Assembly: GCF_013205025.1 (NCBI RefSeq)
Contig: NZ_JABMLE010000001.1
Span: 1,116,001-1,180,000 of the forward strand
DNA length: 64,000 bases
Reading direction: 5' to 3'
Source of the DNA: Rathayibacter sp. VKM Ac-2857
GTDB taxonomy: Bacteria; Actinomycetota; Actinomycetes; Actinomycetales; Microbacteriaceae
Positions 146 to 10,327 of the stretch are shown piece by piece (position 1 is the stretch's first letter; each line of letters begins with the position of its first letter). The notes beneath the pieces are model-generated. The model had not been told where the DNA came from, searched no databases, and saw only the letters and a program-made list of their open reading frames with translations. Both the position numbers and the translations under genes were made by a program.

Positions 146-1144
146 TCACTCGTCATCGCGTGCTCGCAGCCGATCGATCGCCAGCGCGAGGACCAGCACG
201 GTCCCGGTCGCGATGCCCTGCCAGTAGGACGATACATTCAGGATCACGAGGCCGTTGCTCAGCGTCGCCAGGAAGACGATGCCCAGGGCCGTGCGCGGAA
301 TGCTCCCGCGACCGCCGAAGAGCGAGGTCCCGCCGAGCACGACGGCGGCGAAGATGTCGAACTCCGCTCCCTGCCCGTTGTTCGCGGAGCCGGAGCCGAG
401 CCGCCCCGCGAGGAGCACGCCGGCCACCGCCGAGAGCGCCCCGGCGACCACGAACACCTGCATCGCGTGCAGGTTCACCCGCAGCCCCGCGACTCTCGAT
501 GCCCGCCCGGAGGAGCCGATGGCGTACGAGCGCAGCCCCCAGGTGGTCGTGCGCATCACGAGCCACGCGACGACGTAGAGGCCGGTCACCAGCACGACGG
601 CGACCGGGAGCGGGCCGATCGAGCCGGTGCCGACCCACAGGAGGAGATCGAAGCCCTCGACGACCGGCGCCGCGATCGACTGGCCGCTGGTCCAGACCTG
701 CGCGGCGCCGCGGACGACCAGCGCCACGGCGAGCGTGGAGATGAAGCCCGGGATCCGGAGGGTCTCGGTCAGCACGCCGTTGACGAGACCCAGCAGCGCC
801 CCGAGCGCGATCGCGCCGACGACCGCGAGGACCGGCGGCAGGCCGGCCTGCAGGAGCGAGACGCAGGTGATTCCGGACGCCGCGATCAGCGCGCCCTGGC
901 TGATGTCGAGCCGACCGGCGATCAGGATGATCGTCGCGCCGATCGCCGCGACGCCGAGCACCGCCGACTGCCGCAGCACGACGAACAGGTTGTCGAGGGT
1001 GAAGAAGGTCGTCGAGCTGAGGGCGAAGACGACGATCATCACGGCCAGCGCCACCGGCAGCACGATCGTGGCGATGCGCTCCTGGTCGAGCCCGCGCCGC
1101 GGCGGGCGGGCCACGTCGGGTTCGAGAGTGTCGAGGCGGGTCAT
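146..1144 (-). CDS. Ribose-type ABC transporter permease
   Basis: This 332-residue integral membrane protein of the RbsC/BPD_transp_2 family forms the inner-membrane channel of a carbohydrate importer. A cytoplasmic N-terminus of about 25 residues is followed by 8-10 hydrophobic segments. The family signature is present in the second half (GGTSLFGGRGS...RTALG, the typical GG.S..GG.G...G loop that contacts the ATPase). It starts at an ATG that overlaps the ATPase stop by 4 nt (ATGA), so the two are translationally coupled. The substrate cannot be read from the permease; ribose, xylose or another sugar is possible. Confidence 0.9.
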   Translation of the reverse strand: MTRLDTLEPDVARPPRRGLDQERIATIVLPVALAVMIVVFALSSTTFFTLDNLFVVLRQSAVLGVAAIGATIILIAGRLDISQGALIAASGITCVSLLQAGLPPVLAVVGAIALGALLGLVNGVLTETLRIPGFISTLAVALVVRGAAQVWTSGQSIAAPVVEGFDLLLWVGTGSIGPLPVAVVLVTGLYVVAWLVMRTTTWGLRSYAIGSSGRASRVAGLRVNLHAMQVFVVAGALSAVAGVLLAGRLGSGSANNGQGAEFDIFAAVVLGGTSLFGGRGSIPRTALGIVFLATLSNGLVILNVSSYWQGIATGTVLVLALAIDRLRARDDE

Positions 1145-2646
1145 GACGCTCCTCCTGTGGCTGCGGACATGAGTTCTCCTTCGGTGGCGGTGGTCGCCGG
1201 GAGCTCCCGGACGACGGCGCCGTTGCGGACGACGAGGATCCGGTCGCAGGCGGCGCGCAGCTCGGCGATCTCCGAGCTGATGAGCAGGACGGCGACGCCG
1301 TGTGCGGTGAGGTCCCAGACGGTGTCGATGAGATCGGCCTTGGCCCGCACGTCGATGCCGTGGGTGGGCTCGTCGAGGACGAGCAGGGTGAGGTCCTCGG
1401 CGAGGAGGCGCCCGACGAGGACCTTCTGCTGATTGCCTCCGGAGAGCGAGCGGATGTCGAGGGCGTCGCTCGCCGCCTTGATCCGCAGGCGGGACGTCAT
1501 CTCGCGGACCAGGGCGGTCACCGCCCGCCGGTCGAAGACGCCCCCTCGGGCGACGTCCCTCGGTGCCCGGACGATCATGTTCCGGCGGACGCTGAGGTGC
1601 GGCAGGATCCCCTCGGTGCGGCGGTCCTCGGAGAGGTACGCGACGCCCCGGGCGAAGCCGGCGGCGGCGGAGCGCGGGCGGTAGGGCCGGCCGGCCAGCT
1701 GCATCGAGCCGGACTGCAGGGCCTCGAGCCCGGCGATCGATCGGCCGATCGACGACTTCCCGGCGCCGACGAGGCCGAAGACGCCGAGCACCTCGCCGCG
1801 CCGGATCGCGAGGTCGACGGGCGGGCGGCCCTTGATCACCAGCGCGCCGCCGACGAAGGCGGGCTCGCCGAGCGAGGGAACCCGATCGCCTCGGACGACG
1901 GCGGCGGAGCCGGGCACCATGGCGTCGACCACCTGCGGCAGCACCTCCGTCGTGGCGGCGAACTCGCCCGCGACCCGGCCGTCCCGCAGCACGACGATGC
2001 TGTCGCAGAGCTGCACGACCTCGTCGAGCCGGTGCGAGATGAACACCACTCCGACGCCCTCGTCGCTGAGCGAGCGCATCACGCGGAAGAGGCGGGCCGC
2101 CTCGAAGGGAGTGAGCGAGGATGTCGGCTCGTCGAGCAGCAGCACGGACCCGGCGCTGCGCAGGGCGCGCGCCGCCGCGACCAGCTGCCGGTCGCCGATC
2201 GACACGTCGCGCACCAGCGTGTCGACGTCGTTCTCCAGACCCATCCGGCGCAGCAGAGCACGGGCGGCCTCCCGCATCCGCCGCCGATCGAGCTGCAGCG
2301 CGCGCTGGAACGGACGCTCGTCGCCGAGCAACAGGTTCTCGGCGATGGTCAGATCGGGGACGAGATCGAGCTCCTGGCGCACGACGCCGATCCCGTGACG
2401 CTGCGCCTCGCGCGGGCTCGAGAAGGAGACGGGCTCGCCGTCCACCCGCAGCTCGCCGGAGTCGGGCGGCAGCTGACCGGTGAGGATGTTGATGAGGGTG
2501 GACTTGCCGGCCCCGTTCGCACCGGCGAGGCCGAGGATCCGTCCCGCGTGCACCGAGAGGTCGACGTCGGTGAGGGCCGCGACCCCGCCGAAGGACCTGC
2601 TCACGCCGCGGACGGTGAGGATGGGAGTGCCGAGCGACGCCGTCAT
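1141..2646 (-). CDS. Sugar ABC transporter ATP-binding protein (two fused ATPase domains)
   Basis: This 501-residue RbsA/MglA-type ATPase has two nucleotide-binding domains. The first half has Walker A GANGAGKS near residue 38 and Walker B LLLDEPTSSL. The second half has the degenerate P-loop GLVGAGKS, the signature LSGGNQQK and Walker B LVLDEPTHGID. This matches the usual asymmetric arrangement of carbohydrate importers. The ATG overlaps the stop of the binding-protein gene by 4 nt, and its own stop overlaps the permease start. The length is normal for the family. It powers the importer encoded by its two neighbours. Confidence 0.93.
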   Translation of the reverse strand: MTASLGTPILTVRGVSRSFGGVAALTDVDLSVHAGRILGLAGANGAGKSTLINILTGQLPPDSGELRVDGEPVSFSSPREAQRHGIGVVRQELDLVPDLTIAENLLLGDERPFQRALQLDRRRMREAARALLRRMGLENDVDTLVRDVSIGDRQLVAAARALRSAGSVLLLDEPTSSLTPFEAARLFRVMRSLSDEGVGVVFISHRLDEVVQLCDSIVVLRDGRVAGEFAATTEVLPQVVDAMVPGSAAVVRGDRVPSLGEPAFVGGALVIKGRPPVDLAIRRGEVLGVFGLVGAGKSSIGRSIAGLEALQSGSMQLAGRPYRPRSAAAGFARGVAYLSEDRRTEGILPHLSVRRNMIVRAPRDVARGGVFDRRAVTALVREMTSRLRIKAASDALDIRSLSGGNQQKVLVGRLLAEDLTLLVLDEPTHGIDVRAKADLIDTVWDLTAHGVAVLLISSEIAELRAACDRILVVRNGAVVRELPATTATEGELMSAATGGAS

Positions 2647-3662
2647 TCGAGCGAGTCCAGGATCGCCTGGGCGTTCTCCGCCGTCACCAGCTCGGCGGGG
2701 ACGATCTGCTCGCGCTCGACCTCCGTGCCGGAGGCGAGCTCGAGCACCGTCCGCGCGATGATCTCGCCCTGCTGGACCGGGAAGAGGCCGACAGTGGAGA
2801 CGACCTCGCCGGAGAGGACGCCCCGGAGGATGCGCGCGTCCTCGCCGCCGGTGACGATCGCCACGTCCTCGCCGGGGGTGCGCCCGGAGGCCTTGACCGC
2901 CGAGATCGCGCCCAGAGCGCTGGAGTCGTTGAGCCCCACGATCAGGTCGAGATCGGGGTGCGCCTGCAGCACGGTGGCGGTCTGCGCATTGCCGGTGTCC
3001 TCCTGGTACGCCTCGACCTCGCTGACGAGCGTCCACTCCCCCTCGCCGAGCGCCGCGTCGAGCCCCGCGATGACGCCCTCGTGCCGGGCGATCAGCGGTT
3101 CGCCGCCCGAGTCCTGGTGCAGGATCGCGACCGTGGGCTTCTCGTCCACGCGGTTCGCCGCGAGCCAGCCGCCGGCGCTCTCACCCTCGAGCTCGCCGAA
3201 GGCGCGGTCGTCGAGGTTGAAGACGACATCCGCCTCGGGGATGTCGGTCGCGAGGCCGATCACGAGGACGTCCTGAGCGGTGAGCCGGCGCGCCACCGGG
3301 GAGATCGCCTTGGGATCGGTCGGGCAGACGATCACGGCCTTCGCTCCGGCGGCGACCAGGTTCTCGATGCCCGAGACCTGCTCGCCGGACTCGCCGTCGG
3401 GGTCGGAGGTGACGACGTCGATGCCGCAGTCGGACAGGACGCCCTCCAGCCCCTTCTCGACCAGCGGGAAGTAGCCGCCCGTGTTGGAGTAGGGCGAGTA
3501 GCCGACGCGCGTCAGGCCGACGCCGTCGCACTCGGCGGGCCGCTCGCCCGCCGGCGTCGACGCTGCGCTCTGACAGCCGCTCAGCGGGAGCAGCACGACC
3601 GCGGCAGCGGCCAGTGCGACGGCCGTGCGGCGAAGTCTGGTGGTGGGTCCGTGGACATGCAT
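2643..3662 (-). CDS. Sugar-binding lipoprotein of the ribose-type ABC importer
   Basis: This 339-residue periplasmic-binding protein of the Peripla_BP_4 type is the first gene of the importer operon. The ATG at 3662 was chosen because a strong GAAGGAGA (3667-3674 on the reverse strand) sits 4 nt upstream. The N-terminus is a lipoprotein signal: arginines, a hydrophobic run, then the lipobox LSGC at about residue 28. A sugar-binding fold follows (VGYSPYSNTGGYFP, then ...AVIVCPTDPKAISP and VGLNDSSALG). The gene is divergent from the RiPP precursor gene, with 295 nt between them. The ligand is unknown; nothing here links it to peptide export. Confidence 0.9.
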   Translation of the reverse strand: MHVHGPTTRLRRTAVALAAAAVVLLPLSGCQSAASTPAGERPAECDGVGLTRVGYSPYSNTGGYFPLVEKGLEGVLSDCGIDVVTSDPDGESGEQVSGIENLVAAGAKAVIVCPTDPKAISPVARRLTAQDVLVIGLATDIPEADVVFNLDDRAFGELEGESAGGWLAANRVDEKPTVAILHQDSGGEPLIARHEGVIAGLDAALGEGEWTLVSEVEAYQEDTGNAQTATVLQAHPDLDLIVGLNDSSALGAISAVKASGRTPGEDVAIVTGGEDARILRGVLSGEVVSTVGLFPVQQGEIIARTVLELASGTEVEREQIVPAELVTAENAQAILDSLE

Positions 3663-3957
3663 CGTGTCTCCTTCGACAGGACGTGCGGGTGGGGCGACGT
3701 CCCGGGAAGGGGCCGGCGCCACCGGTCACTCTGCCGATGCGCCGGGCCGGAGTCATCCGGTCACCGACGCACGTCCTCCCGCCATCTGGCGGATGGCAGC
3801 GCCATCACGTCGCGATCGGTCGGGACGGATGACCGAGCGCGGATCCTGGTCACCCGTTCATCGGAGGGTGGAATGCGCCGGTGACCGGCGCAGAGTCGGG
3901 TCATCGCCTCGGGGGTCGTCCCGGGCGAGACGCGCACAGAGCGAAGGAGAAGAGACC
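3663..3957. promoter_or_regulatory. Shared divergent promoter region with repeated GGTSACC motifs
   Basis: This 295-nt region separates the importer operon from the RiPP precursor. It holds three 7-nt GGTSACC motifs (3759-3765, 3848-3854, 3880-3886), related half-forms near 3724, 3827 and 3898, and a short GCCATC/GATGGC hairpin at 3781-3797. The spacing is irregular. They could be operators for the TetR protein encoded nearby, but no direct evidence links them. No convincing -10/-35 pair was found by eye. Confidence 0.3.
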
Positions 3958-4122
3958 ATGAACGAGAAGCACCTGATGGACGTCCGGGACCTGCCGATGA
4001 CCGTGTTCGAGGTGGCGGACCAGGGCGGGATCGTCGAGTCGCTCACCGCCGGTCACGGCATGAACGAGCTCGCCGCCTCCAACTGCATCTGCTACATCTG
4101 CTGCGGCGGCCCCGACGACTGA
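3958..4122 (+). CDS. Thiopeptide-like azole RiPP precursor peptide
   Basis: This 54-residue peptide starts at an ATG preceded by GAAGGAGA (3943-3950). Residues 1-40 form a leader with the thiopeptide pattern: DLPM at 11-14, FEVAD at 17-21, ESLTAGHGM at 27-35 and ELAAS at 37-41. The C-terminal core reads NCICYICCGGPDD, with cysteines at 43, 45, 48 and 49. From memory, the thiomuracin precursor TbtA has a nearly identical ESLTAGHGM leader and a core SCNCFCYICCSCSSN, so NCxCYICC is shared. The Ser-rich tail is replaced by GGPDD. The likely product is a peptide with up to four thiazoles (including one bis-thiazole), made by the enzymes at 5001-9495. Cleavage near A40/S41 is inferred. Confidence 0.88.
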   Translation: MNEKHLMDVRDLPMTVFEVADQGGIVESLTAGHGMNELAASNCICYICCGGPDD

Positions 4123-4196
4123 ACGACGTCGCAGAGCGCGCGCCGGTCGATCCCTCGGCCCGGTCCGCGAGCACGCGTCCCTCCGCGTGCCGACTC

Positions 4197-4231
4197 AGGC
4201 TCCCGTCCCGCGTCAGGCAGGACGGGAGCCT
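4197..4231. terminator. Bidirectional terminator hairpin between precursor and TetR gene
   Basis: A perfect 12-bp stem (4197-4208 with 4220-4231, AGGCTCCCGTCC and its complement) has an 11-nt loop. It lies 75 nt after the precursor stop and overlaps the last codons of the convergent TetR gene. There is no long T-run, which is common in high-GC actinobacteria. It probably ends transcription from both sides. Confidence 0.7.
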
Positions 4232-5004
4232 TCTGCCGTCCCCGGCTGCGTCGGAACGATCCACCGACCCTCGGGCGAGACCGTCTCGGCGACCGCCGCC
4301 TCGTACTCGTCGTGCCGGTCGTGGACCGGCTGGCCGAACGACCGCTGCAGGACCGTGCCGAGGAGCCGGGCGCAGTCACCGGCCCGACCGACGTCGCCGG
4401 CCCCCTCCGGCCGCAGGACGAAGCCGCCGACGACCGCTCCGACGGCCAGCCGACCCGATTCCGATCGCGCATCGCCGATCACGAGGTGGTGCCTGCTGAG
4501 CGCACCGAGGTAGCGCGGGTCGGCGAGGCGGGAGACGAGGGAGAGACCGAGTCGGTCCGGGGTCCCGGGCCGGGCACCTCGGGAGCCGAGGACCGCGGTG
4601 TCACCGCGGTTGTAGGCGCCCAGCAGCGGCACCGACATGGTCCCGTGATAGAGCATCGCCGCCGTGGTGCCGAACGCGACCAGCTCCGGCCGGCGCAGCA
4701 GCGCCGCCCCCAGCTCGGCGTCGATCCGGCCCGCGTCGCGGACGAGGACCGCGTCGAGGAGCTCGTCCTTGCTGCTCCAGTGCAGGTAGAGCGTGCCCTT
4801 GCCCACGTGGGCGGCGTCGGCCACGTCCTGCATGCAGACCTTGCGGTAGCCCCAGCGGAGGACGAGATCGCGCATCGCGTCGAGGATGTGCTCACGACGG
4901 CGCGGGTCGGCGCGCTCGGGTCGGCGCGGATGAGCGACCTCCGAGCCTCTGCCGAGAGCCCGGTCGGACCGCGTGCCTCCTCCGTTCGCGGGCGAGGAGG
5001 TCAC
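4213..5004 (-). CDS. TetR-family transcriptional regulator
   Basis: This 263-residue protein is the last gene of the RiPP modification operon. The GTG at 5004 overlaps the cyclodehydratase stop by 4 nt (GTGA). The DNA-binding domain lies at about residues 38-90: helix-turn-helix with VADAAHVGKGTLYLHW, followed by SSKDELLDAVL, the usual TetR pattern. The C-terminal ligand/dimer domain (about 95-240) is not recognised. The first 35 residues are a basic, probably disordered extension. Its place in the operon suggests that it controls the RiPP locus, possibly sensing the product. The target sites are not established. Confidence 0.87.
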   Translation of the reverse strand: MTSSPANGGGTRSDRALGRGSEVAHPRRPERADPRRREHILDAMRDLVLRWGYRKVCMQDVADAAHVGKGTLYLHWSSKDELLDAVLVRDAGRIDAELGAALLRRPELVAFGTTAAMLYHGTMSVPLLGAYNRGDTAVLGSRGARPGTPDRLGLSLVSRLADPRYLGALSRHHLVIGDARSESGRLAVGAVVGGFVLRPEGAGDVGRAGDCARLLGTVLQRSFGQPVHDRHDEYEAAVAETVSPEGRWIVPTQPGTAEGSRPA

Positions 5005-6896
5005 GGGAACGGGTGCGGGTCGGGGTTCAGCTCGTCCGGCCGCAGGTCGCGGTCGAGCCGGCCGAGCCGCCGCGGCAGTTCGAGGAGCCGGGGAAGCCCG
5101 TCGATCCTGCGGTTGCGATGGCCGAACGTCATCGGCACGGCGCCCGGCACGAGCACCTTCACGCAGGCGAATCCTCCCGCGCGGTGCTCCGGAGTCGTCT
5201 GGTCGACGACGAGCACCTCGCCGATCCGCTCGACCACGGCGCGGAGGTCGACCGCGAGGTCGGCGGCGTCCGGGCGCACGCGGTCCGCTCCGCCGACGTC
5301 GTCGATGCCGATCGTCGGACCGCCGCGCAGGAACTCGAGGCGGTGGCGGGCGTCCGGATGCGCGTACAGCGCGGAGTGGTCGAGCATCGTCCGCACGGCG
5401 AACGGATCGCGGACCATCTCCGCGGCGTGCGCCTCCTCGCCCGGATACCGCCGGAGGAGGTCCGCCAGGATCGGGCCGAGCTCGTTCAAGGCGCTCAGCA
5501 GGGCGCGCTCGGGGTCGAGGCCCGCCCCGGCGGTGCAGAGGGCGGCCGGCCCGGAGTCGCCCTGTCGCGTCGCCAGCAGCCAGACCGCCGGGACGCCCCA
5601 GTCCGTCGTGACGTCGAAGGCGACCACCTCGTAGCCGGTCGCGGCGGTGATCGCCGCCGCCTGAGCGGGGACGAGCGGATCGCGGCAGCTGCTCAGGTCG
5701 ATGCCGGCGGGCGCGCTGCGGGTGCACCAGGTGCAGAGGAACGCGTCGCGCTCGACCGTCTCCAGCAGGCCGTGCAGGGCGGCCTCCTCCCAGGAGGAGC
5801 CCAGCGCGCAGCCGTTCGAGACCTCGTAGTACGAGACCGGGTCGTCCCCGCGCAGTCGCTGCGAGAAGTAGTACGCGAGCGCCTCCGGCACGAGCCGCGC
5901 GCGGCCCTCGGCGAAGGAGTGCGCCCAGACCCACTGGATCGGGACGTCCTCGTCGAACCGCCGGTACCGGAAGGCCGGATCGTCGTAGGACTCGTCCGGA
6001 TGCCGCCCGAAGACGTCGGGATGCACGGCGTCGGCGGCGAGCTCGCGGAAGCTCCCCCGCACCGCGGACCGGCGACCGCCCGGGGCGACTCCCCCGTAGC
6101 GCTCGAGCGCCTCCAGCACCGCGGTGACCTCGGCGGAGCGGTAGTCGCGGCCGCGCCCGTAGCCCGGCTCGACCAGACCGTCCAGGCGCATCGGCATCGG
6201 CGCGGCAGCCATGACCAGACCGCCCTCGTCACCGCGGCTCGTGGCGGCGATCGTGCCGCAGAACGGATCGATGTAGAGCGAGCGGAGGCCGTCTGAGTCG
6301 CGCACGACGTCGCGGATCCGCGCGCCGAACGGGACGATCTTGGGCTGCGGCGTGAGGACGTGCTGGGCAGCCGCGGCGGTGTCCTCCGGGAGGTCGCCGC
6401 AGAGCTCGCAGAGGGGCTCGGGGAGGAAGGCGTGCGACTCCACCTCCAGCGTGTCGAGGCGGACCACCGCGACCCGGCGCTGGGCGCCCGCGTCCCCACT
6501 CTCCCGGGCCAGGAGGCGCTCGAGCGCGATCGCCGCGACCTCGGCCGCCAGCTCGTCGAGCGCCTCGGGGCGCCGGCCCTCGAGCCGCTCCGCGTACTCC
6601 TCCCGCAGCCGCAGCCGCCAGGGTTCGGCGCCACTCAAGCGCTCCCGCCGGAGCGCCAGGCACCGCGGGCAGCCCGGGATTCCGGGACGCACGAGGGGCC
6701 CGATCACGATGCGGTTCACCTCGACGTGCGCGGGGAGCCACGGTACGTCCGCCGCGGGAGGGCCGGGGATCCGCCAGGTGTCGGACGCGCGGACGGTGAT
6801 GCCGCTCGCCGCGCCGACGCCGCCCAGGGCTCGCTGGAGCAGTCCGTCCTCCGGGCCGGCGTCCGCGGTCTCGTTCGTGGTCCCGCTCCCGGTCAC
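5001..6896 (-). CDS. Fused C-domain/YcaO azoline-forming cyclodehydratase
   Basis: This 631-residue enzyme is predicted to convert core cysteines to thiazolines using ATP. The N-terminal third is the ThiF-like C domain, with two CxxC pairs (C76/C79 in CPRC and C163/C166 in CELC) that probably bind zinc. From about residue 225 it is a YcaO domain: S254-A-E...E262...E265-R266, then H375-G-L-L-E379-T-V-E382-R383-D384, then FDVTTDWGVP and GAGLDPERALLSALNE. The C-terminus is proline-rich (NPDPHPFP), the PxPxP-like tail typical of azoline-forming YcaO enzymes. The GTG start overlaps the upstream stop (GTGA). The architecture matches the D proteins of F-protein-dependent systems such as thiopeptides. 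Confidence 0.92.
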   Translation of the reverse strand: MTGSGTTNETADAGPEDGLLQRALGGVGAASGITVRASDTWRIPGPPAADVPWLPAHVEVNRIVIGPLVRPGIPGCPRCLALRRERLSGAEPWRLRLREEYAERLEGRRPEALDELAAEVAAIALERLLARESGDAGAQRRVAVVRLDTLEVESHAFLPEPLCELCGDLPEDTAAAAQHVLTPQPKIVPFGARIRDVVRDSDGLRSLYIDPFCGTIAATSRGDEGGLVMAAAPMPMRLDGLVEPGYGRGRDYRSAEVTAVLEALERYGGVAPGGRRSAVRGSFRELAADAVHPDVFGRHPDESYDDPAFRYRRFDEDVPIQWVWAHSFAEGRARLVPEALAYYFSQRLRGDDPVSYYEVSNGCALGSSWEEAALHGLLETVERDAFLCTWCTRSAPAGIDLSSCRDPLVPAQAAAITAATGYEVVAFDVTTDWGVPAVWLLATRQGDSGPAALCTAGAGLDPERALLSALNELGPILADLLRRYPGEEAHAAEMVRDPFAVRTMLDHSALYAHPDARHRLEFLRGGPTIGIDDVGGADRVRPDAADLAVDLRAVVERIGEVLVVDQTTPEHRAGGFACVKVLVPGAVPMTFGHRNRRIDGLPRLLELPRRLGRLDRDLRPDELNPDPHPFP

Positions 6897-8158
6897 GGCA
6901 GGATCACCACCTTGCGGACGACGAGCCCGAGTCTCGCGACGACGGGGTCGTGGTCCAGATCGACGACGACGGCCCGGGGATCGGAGGCGGGAGCCGTCGC
7001 CTGGGCGAGCTTCAGCGCCTCCTCCGCCGTCTCGGCGACTCCGAGGCCGCCGGTGGTCGGTGCGGTGTCCGAGCAGCGGAAGACGAGGGAGACCGGCACC
7101 CGGACACTCGAGCCGTCGGTGAGGCGGCGGCCCGGGACGGTGAACGCGGCGGGCTCGGCGATCACGCGGCGGACGGCCTCGCGCAGCTCCTCGAGGGTCG
7201 CGGTCGGCGCGGCGAGCGCTCGGCCGGCACTGTCGAGCACCCGGCGCGGATCGAGGACCGACTCCGCGCGGACCGCGAGCGCCCGGCGGACGGCGTCGGC
7301 CCGCGCCGCTGCGAAATCCGCACCCTCGCCGACGACCTCGGCGTCGCGCCTCGCGACGACGGCGTCGCAGGCGACCAGCGCTCGGGAGTGGTGGCGCGGC
7401 ACCTGCGGCAGGTCCGCCTCCTCGATCAGGCGGAGGACCCCGAAGTCGGGGTCGACGACGGTCATCGCGCGCTCCTCGAACGGACCGGTCACCTCCGGCT
7501 GCCCGGCCTGCCACGGGTGCGGGCTGATCCGGGTGAGCACCGATCCCACCGCGGTCACCGTCCTCGCCCGCCACGGATCCGTGCGACCGGACGCAGCCCG
7601 GCGGACCAGCTGGGCGACGGCGAGCCGCACGACGTCCTTGTCGGGCTCGCCCGCCTCGACGACGCGCTCCGCCACGGCCACCAGCACCGGGAGCAGCTCC
7701 GACCCGGTGGTCGGGCCGACGACGAGCGCCGCACCCTCGCGCAGCAGCACCGCCCCGCAGGTCCTCTCCGGATGCTCGCGGACCTCGTCGATCAGCCACC
7801 GCCCCGCTGTCGGGCCGACGGCGAGCCAGGATTCCGGGAGCTCGCGGCCGCTCAGCGCCACTGCCCGCTCCAGCAGTTCCGTCTCGCCGAGGAAGCGGAC
7901 GCGACCGGCGACGGGCACCTCGCGGAGCAGGCCGAGGGAGAGCATCGCGCTCCGCACGAGCCGGAGCTGATCCGCCCGGGCGGGATCGAGCGACCGCGCG
8001 CGCTCCTCGACGTCGTCCCCGGCGAGGATCCAGGCCGTGATCACGCGCATCCAGCCCGCGATCTCGCCGGTGAGGACGATGTCGCCGGCGGCGGTCATGC
8101 CGTAGGTGCGGCCCTCGTGGTCGATCACGCAGGCGCTGGTGTCCACGGTGAGGGTCAT
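6893..8158 (-). CDS. Leader-binding F protein (ocin-ThiF-like) of the cyclodehydratase
   Basis: This 421-residue protein has no strong catalytic motif. Residues 1-80 look like a RiPP recognition element: a short beta hairpin (YGMTAAGDIVLTG) followed by helices (WMRVITAWILAG, LRLVRSAMLSLGLL) in the PqqD-like winged-helix order. The rest is weakly conserved. A stretch EVVGEGADFAAARADAVRRAL resembles a degenerate YcaO helix region. Its length, content and position between the dehydrogenase and the C/YcaO protein match the ocin-ThiF-like F proteins of thiopeptide clusters, which deliver the leader to the cyclodehydratase. Both ends overlap neighbours by 4 nt. The function is inferred mainly from order and the RRE-like start. 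Confidence 0.78.
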   Translation of the reverse strand: MTLTVDTSACVIDHEGRTYGMTAAGDIVLTGEIAGWMRVITAWILAGDDVEERARSLDPARADQLRLVRSAMLSLGLLREVPVAGRVRFLGETELLERAVALSGRELPESWLAVGPTAGRWLIDEVREHPERTCGAVLLREGAALVVGPTTGSELLPVLVAVAERVVEAGEPDKDVVRLAVAQLVRRAASGRTDPWRARTVTAVGSVLTRISPHPWQAGQPEVTGPFEERAMTVVDPDFGVLRLIEEADLPQVPRHHSRALVACDAVVARRDAEVVGEGADFAAARADAVRRALAVRAESVLDPRRVLDSAGRALAAPTATLEELREAVRRVIAEPAAFTVPGRRLTDGSSVRVPVSLVFRCSDTAPTTGGLGVAETAEEALKLAQATAPASDPRAVVVDLDHDPVVARLGLVVRKVVILP

Positions 8159-9495
8159 TCCGCCACCGCCGGGGTGCTGCGGAGCCTCGAGCCGACGAGG
8201 AACTGGCCCACGCTGCACTCGAGGAGGGGGTCGCGGCCGGTCGCCTCGGCGAAGGCGACGGGGTCGTCGGTGCCGAGCGGGCATCCTGCGAGCTCCATCG
8301 CGCTGCACGCCCCGGCGAGAGCCTGATGGAGGACACCGGTGTCCTTCATCACGAGCTCGAACGCCATCTGCTCGTACTTCCACAGCACGCGGCCGACCCG
8401 GGCCGAGACGACGATCAGGACCTGCGGGGCGGCGTCGATCGCGGCGGCCCGGCTCGCGACGCGGAGCATCCGGCGCACCGCGGGACGGCCGATGCCGCAG
8501 ACCTCCTCGAGCTCGTGGCGGTGCGCGTCGTAGTGGTAGAAGGACGGATCGAGCCCGGCGCAGCGCGAGACGGCCAGGTACAGCTCGAGCTCGGAGAGCG
8601 AGCCGCCGGACGGCCGCGGCGAGCTGACCACCTCCGTCCCGTGGTCGACGCGGGTCCCGCGGACCCGGGCCGTCCGGAACAGGAGCTCCCCGAGCTCGGC
8701 GACGTCGATCGGCGCGTCGTCGTCGTGCTCGCGCAGGGACGTCCGGCGCTCGACGACCTCGGCGTACGGCGGGTCGCTCGCGCGCAGGGCGGCGATGTCG
8801 ACCGGCGGGAGCGCGACCCGGTGCCCGCCGAAGGGGGCGGGGACGGCGCCCTCCGGAGCGAACCCCGCCTTCCCGCCCCACCAGGTGCCGCCGAAGTCTC
8901 CCTCCGCTCCGCGGTAGCCCGGCCTGCTGCGATCCCAGAAGAGCAGCTCGTGGGGCGCCCACTGCCGGAAGCGGAACTCCGCGTCCTCCCGGCCGCCGGG
9001 CTCCGCGAGGAAGCCGTGCCGGTGGAGCTCTCGGTGCAGGGCCGCGGCGAGCCCGCCGACACCCGAGAGCGCCTCGGCGAGGAGCGACCGACGGTGCAGC
9101 ACGATCTCGGCACTGGCGAGCGGCGACTCGACGAGCAGGTCCGGGCCGTCCCGGCGGACCACCGCGAACCTCGAGAGGTCGAGGTCGAGGTCGGTGACGG
9201 ACACGGAAGAGGGTTCCACCGCGGCCCGCAGCGGACGGACGTCGAAGCCGGGACCGTCGTCGTCGCCGAACTCCTGGACGAGCCAGCCGTCCTCGCGCAG
9301 TCGCACCGTGACCGGATCGTCGGCGCCGCCCCGGCAGCCGTCGACGAGCTGCCGGAGTCGCTCGTCGACCGCCGCGCCGCCCCCGAGCGTCAAGGACCTG
9401 GGCCACGCCAGCACGGTGGTGCCGCTGTCGTCCCGCGTCGCGTACACGCCCGGTCGCAGGCGCTCGGCACGGGGCCCGGGGACGTTCTCGCGCAT
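8155..9495 (-). CDS. SagB-type FMN-dependent azoline dehydrogenase
   Basis: This 446-residue enzyme is the first gene of the modification operon, with RBS GGAGAAGGAG just upstream of the ATG. It should oxidise thiazolines to thiazoles with FMN. The C-terminal nitroreductase fold carries ERRTSLREHDD (about 249-259), RPSGGSLSELELYLAV (about 294-309), WKYEQMAFEL with the K373-Y374 pair expected for azoline oxidation, and VGQFLVGSR near the end. The N-terminal 230 residues form the extra domain seen in thiopeptide dehydrogenases. It ends in a 4-nt overlap with the F-protein gene. The upstream region 9496-9640 has no clear promoter. Confidence 0.9.
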   Translation of the reverse strand: MRENVPGPRAERLRPGVYATRDDSGTTVLAWPRSLTLGGGAAVDERLRQLVDGCRGGADDPVTVRLREDGWLVQEFGDDDGPGFDVRPLRAAVEPSSVSVTDLDLDLSRFAVVRRDGPDLLVESPLASAEIVLHRRSLLAEALSGVGGLAAALHRELHRHGFLAEPGGREDAEFRFRQWAPHELLFWDRSRPGYRGAEGDFGGTWWGGKAGFAPEGAVPAPFGGHRVALPPVDIAALRASDPPYAEVVERRTSLREHDDDAPIDVAELGELLFRTARVRGTRVDHGTEVVSSPRPSGGSLSELELYLAVSRCAGLDPSFYHYDAHRHELEEVCGIGRPAVRRMLRVASRAAAIDAAPQVLIVVSARVGRVLWKYEQMAFELVMKDTGVLHQALAGACSAMELAGCPLGTDDPVAFAEATGRDPLLECSVGQFLVGSRLRSTPAVAE

Positions 9496-9646: not shown

Positions 9647-10090
9647 CATGCTGATCGAGTAGCCCGCGTAGCGGGCGTATCGAGCGGAGGGGGCGCCTCC
9701 GGCGCCAGCGCGGGGCGGGGAAGAGACCGACGTCCTTGGGGTGGTGGGTCTCGATACGCCCCTTCGGGGCTACTCGACCAGCATGAGTGCGGGCGTCTCT
9801 TCCAAGTAGATCCACCGACGTCAGGAGGACGAGTCTGCAGACCCACCCTGCTGATGACGGTGGGTCTCGATACGCCCCTGCGGGGCTACTCGACCAGCAT
9901 GAGGGAACGCCGCCGCGTCCTCCCATCGGAAAGATCACCGTGACGGCGTGAGGACGACCCCATGCTGATCGAGTAGCCCGCGTAGCGGGCGTATCGAGAT
10001 CCACCCATGCCAGAAGGACGAGTCTGCAGACCCACCCTGCTGATGACGGTGGGTCTCGATACGCCCCTGCGGGGCTACTCGACCAGCATG
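9647..10090. repeat. Array of REP-like palindromic repeats
   Basis: Five copies of a ~38-nt imperfect palindrome lie at 9647-9684 (inverted), 9747-9785, 9863-9901, 9961-9998 (inverted) and 10052-10090. Each has the form GTCTCGATACGCC, a short GC hairpin, GGCTACTCGACCAGCATG. The spacers are also repeated: GTCTGCAGAC palindromes at 9833-9842 and 10022-10031, each about 30 nt before a copy. No gene is supported here; long open frames across the array are translation artefacts of the repeats. Related clusters occur at 16063, 50717 and 59175. Confidence 0.9.
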
Positions 10091-10180
10091 CACATCCCTG
10101 CCGGCTAGTCGACCAGCATGCACATCCCTGCCGGCTGGTCGACCAGCATGCGCATCCCTGCGGGCTCCTCAGCCGGCATG
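10091..10180 (+). repeat. Three tandem 30-bp repeats
   Basis: Three direct units (10091-10120, 10121-10150, 10151-10180) each combine CAYATCCCTGCCGGCT with the tail GTCGACCAGCATG of the adjacent palindromic element. The third unit has diverged. The array looks like a local amplification of the repeat tail. Confidence 0.85.
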
Positions 10181-10239: not shown

Positions 10240-10327
10240 TGGCGGAGGGCTAGGGATTCGAACCCTAGAGACATCTCTGCCCACCAGTTTTCAAGACTGG
10301 CTCCATCGGCCGCTCGGACAGCCCTCC
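10240..10327 (-). tRNA. tRNA-Ser (UGA anticodon)
   Basis: On the reverse strand a class II tRNA runs from GGAGGGC (10327) to the matching GCCCTCC, discriminator G (10243) and an encoded CCA (10242-10240). The anticodon arm reads CCAGTCTTGAAAACTGG, giving anticodon TGA. A long variable arm (GGGCAGAGATGTCTC) and a T arm with GGTTCGAATCC are present. It lies downstream of serS on the same strand. Confidence 0.96.

What the first reader, a model, noticed from the sequence alone, without database searches (positions are those of the whole stretch)
3958..9495. Compact RiPP locus: thiopeptide-type precursor with azole enzymes but no dehydratase or cycloaddition genes
The sequence shows a 54-residue precursor with a thiopeptide leader, a SagB dehydrogenase, an F protein and a fused C/YcaO cyclodehydratase. 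This is the azole-forming set of thiopeptide clusters (TbtE/F/G-like in thiomuracin, from established knowledge). The LanB-type glutamylation and elimination proteins (TbtB/C) and the pyridine synthase (TbtD) are absent from the locus and the rest of the window. The likely product is a linear polythiazole from a thiopeptide lineage that has lost, or never gained, macrocyclisation. I know of no described family with exactly this content.
Basis: partly seen in the sequence, partly recalled or inferred. Interest (0 to 1): 0.93.

Follow-up and report, generated by a model that had tools for sequence, protein, structure and literature searches.

The report
Thiopeptide locus reduced to linear thiazoles
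A few Rathayibacter bacteria carry a cut-down version of an antibiotic-making gene cluster that kept the genes for making thiazole rings but lost both the ring-closing genes and the amino acids those genes act on, so it probably makes a new linear peptide whose role is unknown.

Summary
At 3958-9495 lie a 54-aa precursor (NCBIfam thiomuracin/GE37468 family, E=1.8e-18), a SagB dehydrogenase, an F protein and a fused C/YcaO cyclodehydratase. No dehydratase (B, C) or pyridine-synthase (D) homologue was found in this genome or in the two other Rathayibacter genomes with the locus; the same searches ring in control genomes. The nearest relatives are GE37468-type clusters with B, C and D in three Streptomyces. 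A YcaO tree makes the compact locus their sister, so loss is the best reading. The core changed to match: no Ser/Thr after Ser1 in 3 of 3 compact precursors, three or more in 17 of 17 other rows. Four Cys remain. Frames are intact in three species, and enzymes and TetR are under purifying selection. An inverted repeat upstream of the precursor is shared with Streptomyces clusters. Best explanation: a thiopeptide pathway reduced to a linear tetrathiazole peptide. It is not a thiopeptide by product. Chemistry, leader removal, export and role are untested.

The parts
3829..3853 (.). Inverted repeat ATGACC-N13-GGTCAC, candidate TetR operator, 129 bp upstream of the precursor start codon
   Evidence: Only match in the window (shuffles: mean 0.01); one place in each of the 3 compact genomes, always here; also upstream of the precursor in Streptomyces clusters. 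TetR binding is inferred.
3958..4122 (+). Precursor peptide, 54 aa; core S41-D54 SNCICYICCGGPDD with 4 Cys
   Evidence: NF033399 E=1.8e-18; leader in register with the Planobispora rosea precursor, L(-29) and F(-24) kept
4198..4230 (.). Inverted repeat (11-base arms) between the convergent precursor and operon ends; possible bidirectional terminator
   Evidence: Seen by eye, arms identical in all three species; no T-run, and the terminator scan reported none. Inference.
4213..5004 (-). TetR-family regulator, last gene of the enzyme operon; GTG start overlaps the YcaO stop
   Evidence: PF00440 E=6.6e-13; 43-47% identity to the TetR of the Streptomyces clusters
5001..6896 (-). Fused C/YcaO cyclodehydratase (TbtG/GetG-like), 631 aa
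   Evidence: TIGR03604, TIGR03882; 67-68% identity to the Streptomyces homologues; invariant E262/E265/R266 and C-terminal PHPFP in A1
6893..8158 (-). F protein (TbtF/GetF-like), 421 aa, shorter than the Streptomyces homologues (542-548 aa)
8155..9495 (-). SagB-type FMN dehydrogenase (TbtE/GetE-like), 446 aa
   Evidence: TIGR03605 E=1.2e-33; 57-59% identity to the Streptomyces homologues; Lys-Tyr pair K373-Y374 kept

Best explanation
The locus is a GE37468/thiomuracin-type thiopeptide cluster that has been reduced to its azole-forming half. SHOWN: the precursor, E, F, G and the cluster TetR are present; B, C, D and the P450 that follows G in the relatives are not in the window, and B, C and D were not found in the genome; the core has no Ser/Thr except Ser1; the set is intact in three species and its enzymes and TetR are constrained. 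INFERRED: the genes were lost rather than never there; the F protein binds the leader; the C/YcaO enzyme cyclodehydrates four Cys; the SagB enzyme oxidises them, giving a linear SN-Thz-Ile-Thz-Tyr-Ile-Thz-Thz-GGPDD peptide (minus 80.1 Da). TetR controls the precursor promoter through the repeat at 3829-3853. Because thiopeptides release the leader in the [4+2] step, which is missing here, the leader must be cut by a protease encoded elsewhere, or it stays on.
For: Family matches. No Lant_dehydr_C, B-profile or D-profile match in the own genome, with positive controls ringing in the same calls. Closest relatives have precursor, B, C, D, E, F, G in that order. YcaO tree: compact 3 + GE37468-type 3 as one set at 100/100. 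Core: 0 Ser/Thr after +1 in 3 of 3 compact rows, 3-7 in 17 of 17 other rows. dN/dS 0.18-0.38 for YcaO, F, SagB and TetR, Fisher p from 1e-8 to 3e-23 in the four window-G009 tests made. Conserved motifs (their catalytic roles recalled). Leader F-binding motif in register. Shared operator-like repeat.
Against: No product has been seen. No protease, exporter or immunity gene is in the locus (a sugar-type ABC transporter is next door). The F protein lacks about 120 residues that the Streptomyces F proteins have, and one of six leader residues reported to matter for TbtF binding differs (D-26 to T). The precursor itself shows no significant constraint in one of the two pairs tested (p=0.53; the other p=0.005; third pair not tested); its dN/dS is 0.21-0.68. 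The deep branches of the tree are weak, and a tree cannot by itself separate loss from gain.
Confidence: 0.85

Rival explanations
1. The locus is a decaying remnant of a thiopeptide cluster that no longer makes anything.
For: Many genes of the relatives' clusters are missing, F is shortened, and no exporter or protease is in the locus. Enzyme and TetR dN/dS (0.18-0.38) is at or above that of five neighbouring genes (0.04-0.18), and the precursor's is 0.21-0.68.
Against: All five reading frames are intact in three species at synonymous divergence of about 0.22-0.35 in enzymes and TetR; constraint on enzymes and TetR is highly significant; Cys, leader motif, enzyme motifs and operator-like repeat are kept; the same core remodelling is shared.
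Confidence: 0.08
2. The locus is primitive: a linear azole cluster that never had B, C and D, from which thiopeptides grew.
For: Changes counted on a tree cannot tell gain from loss (treekit note), and the deep branches of the YcaO tree are weak.
Against: It is sister to one thiopeptide subgroup at 100/100; E-F-G order and TetR match that subgroup; the precursor belongs to a thiopeptide precursor family.
Confidence: 0.04
3. Dehydratase and cycloaddition enzymes encoded elsewhere act on the precursor, giving a normal thiopeptide.
For: In most B. cereus heterocycloanthracin clusters the precursor gene is not near the cyclodehydratase gene (PMC4603692 passage), so split sets exist.
Against: No match in a genome rated 100% complete, and the core has no second Ser for the pyridine.
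Confidence: 0.02

Closest known systems
GE37468 / thiomuracin / GE2270 thiopeptide clusters (closest held: S. griseocarneus L025, S. bungoensis L026, S. pyxinae L027)
   Same: Precursor leader, E, F, G and TetR are homologous (YcaO 67-68%, SagB 57-59%, F 42-44%, TetR 43-47%); same E-F-G order; shared repeat upstream of the precursor
   Different: No B, C, D, P450, M20 peptidase, HEAT protein or ABC-2 permease match in the window; core lacks all Ser/Thr except Ser1; precursor gene now convergent to the enzyme operon
Heterocycloanthracin-type F-dependent linear azole peptides
   Same: F protein, fused cyclodehydratase and dehydrogenase are the only genes common to all those clusters (PMC4603692 passages)
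   Different: Precursor here belongs to the GetA family and the enzymes are nearest, among what was searched, to thiopeptide enzymes; no direct comparison with heterocycloanthracin sequences was made
Pyritides (Micromonospora rosaria)
   Same: Also a minimal cluster of thiopeptide kinship that lacks part of the machinery (PMC9247985 passage)
   Different: The mirror image: pyritides lack the azole genes and have dehydratase and pyridine synthase
Goadsporin and coryneazolisin
   Same: Azole-containing, no [4+2] enzyme (PMC4603692 passages)
   Different: Both have lanthipeptide-like dehydratases (same passages), not found here

Membership tests
Thiopeptide (by product) | Pyridine synthase gene (TbtD-like) | tested here: not met
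   0 matches in G000 with PF14028 and a D profile; the D profile rang in G002 (used to build it) and G1097 (not used)
Thiopeptide (by product) | Split LanB-type dehydratase (B and C) | tested here: not met
   0 matches in G000 with a B profile (rang in G002, weakly in G003, and in G1097) and with PF14028, which hits both C and D of R. iranicus. PF04738 agrees but is insensitive: it misses the Streptomyces B protein
Thiopeptide (by product) | Second Ser in the core for the six-membered ring | tested here: not met
   No Ser/Thr after +1 in 3 of 3 compact precursors
NF033399 thiomuracin/GE37468 precursor family | Score above curated cut-off | tested here: met
   66.3 bits against 29
Linear azol(in)e-containing peptide | YcaO cyclodehydratase with an adjacent Cys-bearing precursor | tested here: met
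Linear azol(in)e-containing peptide | Azoles in a linear mature product | not testable with these tools
   Needs mass spectrometry
F-protein-dependent cyclodehydratase | F protein with N-terminal leader-binding RRE | tested here: inconclusive
Pyritide | Dehydratase and pyridine synthase without azole genes | tested here: not met
   Opposite content
Heterocycloanthracin | HCA-type precursor and D-protein group | not tested
   No HCA sequence or model was compared

The most novel reading that the evidence does not exclude
A thiopeptide antibiotic pathway has been converted by gene loss and matched core change into a new class of linear tetrathiazole peptide that no longer targets EF-Tu, possibly with the leader left on or cut by a housekeeping protease, and which acts as the ligand of its own TetR regulator, that is, as a signal rather than an antibiotic.
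Probability: 0.12. Interest if true: 0.8.

Novelty: new variant of a known kind. Interest (0 to 1): 0.62.

Why it matters
It looks like a natural case of a macrocyclic antibiotic pathway losing its defining step while the precursor adapted to the loss. It complements pyritides, which have the ring-closing half without the azole half. It makes testable how thiopeptide and linear-azole families interconvert, whether thiopeptide azole enzymes work without the dehydratase in a natural setting, how the leader is removed when no [4+2] step releases it, and what a linear thiopeptide relative does. The shared operator-like repeat also gives a candidate DNA site for TetR regulators of this antibiotic family.

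Tried and rejected
Trans-acting dehydratase: searched for and not found. The first two calls had no positive control that rang, so the search was repeated with genomes known to hold the genes. PF04738 proved insensitive (it misses the Streptomyces B protein, and scores R. iranicus below its cut-off), hence the home-made B and D profiles.

Other lineages: the order search (396 genomes) gave YcaO matches at E<=1e-30 in 13 genomes besides the own: two at 47% identity, which lie in clusters with B, C and D and a kocurin-type core, and eleven at 30-36%. Of those eleven I looked at the surroundings of three (L096, L097, L098), not of the other eight. The weak GetA hit in G237 had no cluster gene near it (no tblastn hit in L016). 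The phylum search (396 genomes) found two hits outside the window, both in one genome (G749), not followed up. In one search, G009, which does carry the precursor, is not among the listed matches; whether it was not drawn or was missed cannot be told. Plasmids: 10 of 72,556 records with a YcaO match at E<=1e-30, all under 60% identity. The genome-contig scan rests on two 8-residue patterns, so relatives without them would be missed.

Promoter and terminator scan found nothing. Papers: no Rathayibacter linear-azole cluster of this kind was seen in searches (listings; passages of PMC7143919 and PMC10628120 only), nor a thiopeptide relative of this content in searches (listings, some cut at 15 or 20 rows, plus passages of PMC4603692, PMC9247985, PMC12710340, PMC12325987, PMC3943966 and PMC3705389). 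Most subscription papers are not in the library, so this is weak evidence of novelty. PMC7143919 (passages) does report a thiopeptide cluster in one R. toxicus population; it was not compared.

Row counts: of 26 loci, 22 have a B-type tblastn match (E<=1e-2) in the DNA held. The four without are L024 (compact locus of G011), L038 (contig ends 347 bases after the YcaO match), L048 (YcaO match in several pieces) and L049 (Ruminococcaceae, C/D-like matches only). Nine of the 26 (L031, L036, L041, L042, L045-L049) gave no precursor by tblastn or, for eight of the nine, a motif scan, and are not in the count; there the cores were cut out by eye. The tree left out L024 and L044 (duplicates) and L048. 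Tree rows without a seen B gene are the three compact ones, L015, L038 and L049.

Full report
THE OBSERVATION. A 54-aa ORF starts at 3958 on the + strand behind a good ribosome-binding site and matches the NCBIfam thiomuracin/GE37468 precursor family far above its cut-off. Facing it on the - strand is an operon: SagB dehydrogenase (8155-9495), F protein (6893-8158), fused C/YcaO cyclodehydratase (5001-6896) and TetR regulator (4213-5004), with 4-base overlaps between successive genes (coordinates). SagB and C/YcaO have clear family matches. The F protein has none and rests on homology to the gene at the same place in three Streptomyces clusters and on a C-terminal stretch (query residues about 217-351) that hits 13 further loci at E from 9e-9 to 0.011.

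WHERE IT IS. The genus is Rathayibacter: one compact locus, G011, is the named record Rathayibacter sp. VKM Ac-2856, and G002 is R. iranicus. The abstract of PMC7143919 (seen in part) says that R. toxicus has the smallest genome of the genus, so this is very unlikely to be it. Close YcaO relatives (91%) occur in 2 of the other 14 genus genomes (G009, G011), at the same site. In the other 12 the SerRS-HAD-tRNA-Ser(TGA) block is kept, and no locus gene was seen beside it within the stretches held (tblastn E<=1e-5, matches under 35% identity not printed; the G014 stretch is only 6.8 kb). In G007 and G001, the two aligned to the window by blastn, homology ends at the 3' end of the tRNA (window 10240-10241). 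The locus therefore lies in a variable region beside a tRNA gene.

DEHYDRATASE AND CYCLOADDITION GENES NOT FOUND. PF14028 (hits C and D) gave no match in G000, G009 or G011 but rang in G002 and G003, of 8 genomes searched. A profile of B proteins gave none in G000, G009, G011, G007 or G001 and rang in G002, G003 (E=1.8e-6 only) and G1097 (9.6e-89), the last two not used to build it. A D profile gave none in those five nor in G003, and rang in G002 and G1097. PF04738 agrees but is insensitive, since it misses the Streptomyces B protein.

ANCESTRY. A scan of 84,980 species' genomes, by two peptide patterns from a YcaO alignment, gave 26 loci. After the Rathayibacter copy, the nearest are in S. 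griseocarneus, S. bungoensis and S. pyxinae (67-68% identity). All three have precursor, B, C, D, E, F, G in that order, then a P450, a 618-634 aa protein, TetR and an M20 peptidase (Pfam only for S. griseocarneus; of the S. bungoensis precursor only the last 31 residues are held). An ABC-2 permease gene lies before the precursor, or, in S. bungoensis, ABC genes lie between it and B. Their core STNCFCYICCSCSSN is, from recall, that of GE37468. In a 29-row YcaO tree the three compact rows (100/100) and the three Streptomyces rows (100/99) form one set at 100/100. The deeper branches are weak (83-89 bootstrap), and the join of the P. rosea row to this set (89/88) was flagged as a possible long-branch join; by its place after the TetR gene that row is probably the extra YcaO pbtG1, not pbtG (gene order from a PMC3943966 passage). 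Two genomes of another family of the order have 47% YcaO in clusters with B, C, D and a kocurin-type core (the kocurin label is recalled). Given that the sister clusters have the full set, loss in Rathayibacter is the simplest reading.

CORE AND ENZYMES CHANGED TOGETHER. Against STNCFCYICCSCSSN, the compact cores read SNCICYICCGGPDD (window) and SNCVCYICCGGPAA (G009, G011). Ser/Thr after position 1: 0 in 3 of 3 compact rows, 3 to 7 in 17 of 17 other rows. The second Ser needed for the six-membered ring is gone, so even a dehydratase from elsewhere could not make the macrocycle. Four Cys stay.

LIKELY CHEMISTRY. Published work places the TbtF contact at Leu(-29) and Phe(-24) of the leader (PMC12710340 passages) and lists L-32, D-30, L-29, M-27, D-26, F-24 as important (PMC12325987 passages). 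All three compact leaders have V, D, L, M, T, F in the same register: four identical, one conservative, one changed. The YcaO keeps the two Glu that align, by my count, with LynD E423/E426, and the C-terminal PHPFP (their catalytic role is recalled); SagB keeps its Lys-Tyr pair (role recalled). In PMC9247985 (passages) TbtEFG converted all Cys of a designed substrate to thiazole/thiazoline, and the dehydratase and pyridine enzymes then closed the ring, so I take it that the azole set can act alone. The predicted product is a linear peptide with four thiazoles. The same paper says that the [4+2] step also expels the leader; here it cannot, so leader removal is an open point.

SELECTION. Among the window, G009 and G011, dN/dS is 0.20-0.24 (YcaO), 0.33-0.38 (F), 0.30-0.33 (SagB), 0.18-0.23 (TetR, from an internal Met), against 0.04-0.18 for five neighbouring genes. 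For the window-G009 pair the excess of synonymous change is significant in all four (p from 1.4e-8 to 3e-23). The precursor has few changes, dN/dS 0.21-0.68: p=0.53 in one pair and 0.005 in another (third pair not tested). All frames are intact.

REGULATION. The inverted repeat RTGACC-N13-GGTCAY occurs once in the window, at 3829-3853 (0.01 expected), and at one place in each of the three compact genomes, always upstream of the precursor. It also lies upstream of the precursor in S. griseocarneus and S. pyxinae. In S. bungoensis a match lies about 200 bases beyond the end of L026 on the precursor side, if its contig 7 is the record of L026, as the coordinates suggest. Of the other genomes searched, G002 has one match and P. 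rosea six, G007 and G1097 none, and the three Streptomyces have 3 to 6 in all. The motif was found after looking, not predicted beforehand. A TetR-like gene, pbtR, is required for GE2270 production in a heterologous host (PMC3943966 passage). I infer that the cluster's TetR acts at this repeat.

VERDICT. A new variant of a known kind: thiopeptide ancestry, linear-azole content. It should not be filed as a thiopeptide, because three defining features were tested and not met. What the product does is unknown; an antibacterial role by the EF-Tu route is unlikely without the macrocycle (inference).

Noticed in passing
L013 8470-17467 (R. iranicus, G002 contig 5): A complete thiopeptide cluster in the same genus, with a short core SWPSCGCSCSSLP (lactazole-like, recalled) and B, C, D, E, F, G; it lies in a stretch that the window-trained gene caller largely failed to call.
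   Followed up: partly
L015 7974-11714 (R. iranicus, G002 contig 17): A second YcaO plus SagB locus in R. iranicus (YcaO 28-32% identity to the window's; no B match).
   Followed up: no
L078 5104-16111 (G003): Another Rathayibacter genome carries a divergent YcaO gene and LanB-type genes some kilobases apart.
   Followed up: no
L094, L095 (G1097, G1070): Two genomes of another family of the same order carry a kocurin-type cluster (core STNCFCYPCCSCSAPSSSA; label recalled).
   Followed up: partly
window 3724-3904: Six GGTCAC/GGTCAT-type boxes upstream of the precursor, the densest such 190-base stretch in the window; the N13 pair is the part seen in Streptomyces too.
   Followed up: partly
window 146-3722: The neighbouring sugar-type ABC transporter genes differ between G009 and G011 by dS of only 0.04-0.07, against 0.23-0.35 for enzymes and TetR next door, which hints at recombination at this site.
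   Followed up: no
window 9650-10180: Several copies of a GTCTCGATACGCCCC...CTACTCGACCAGCATG repeat in both orientations between the cluster and tRNA-Ser (by eye).
   Followed up: no
L111 (Clavibacter sp. [quoted passage not shown]
   Followed up: no
window 6893-8158, against L025-L027: The compact F protein lacks about 120 residues near the C-terminus that all three Streptomyces homologues have; whether this part serves the dehydratase or cycloaddition enzymes is unknown.
   Followed up: partly
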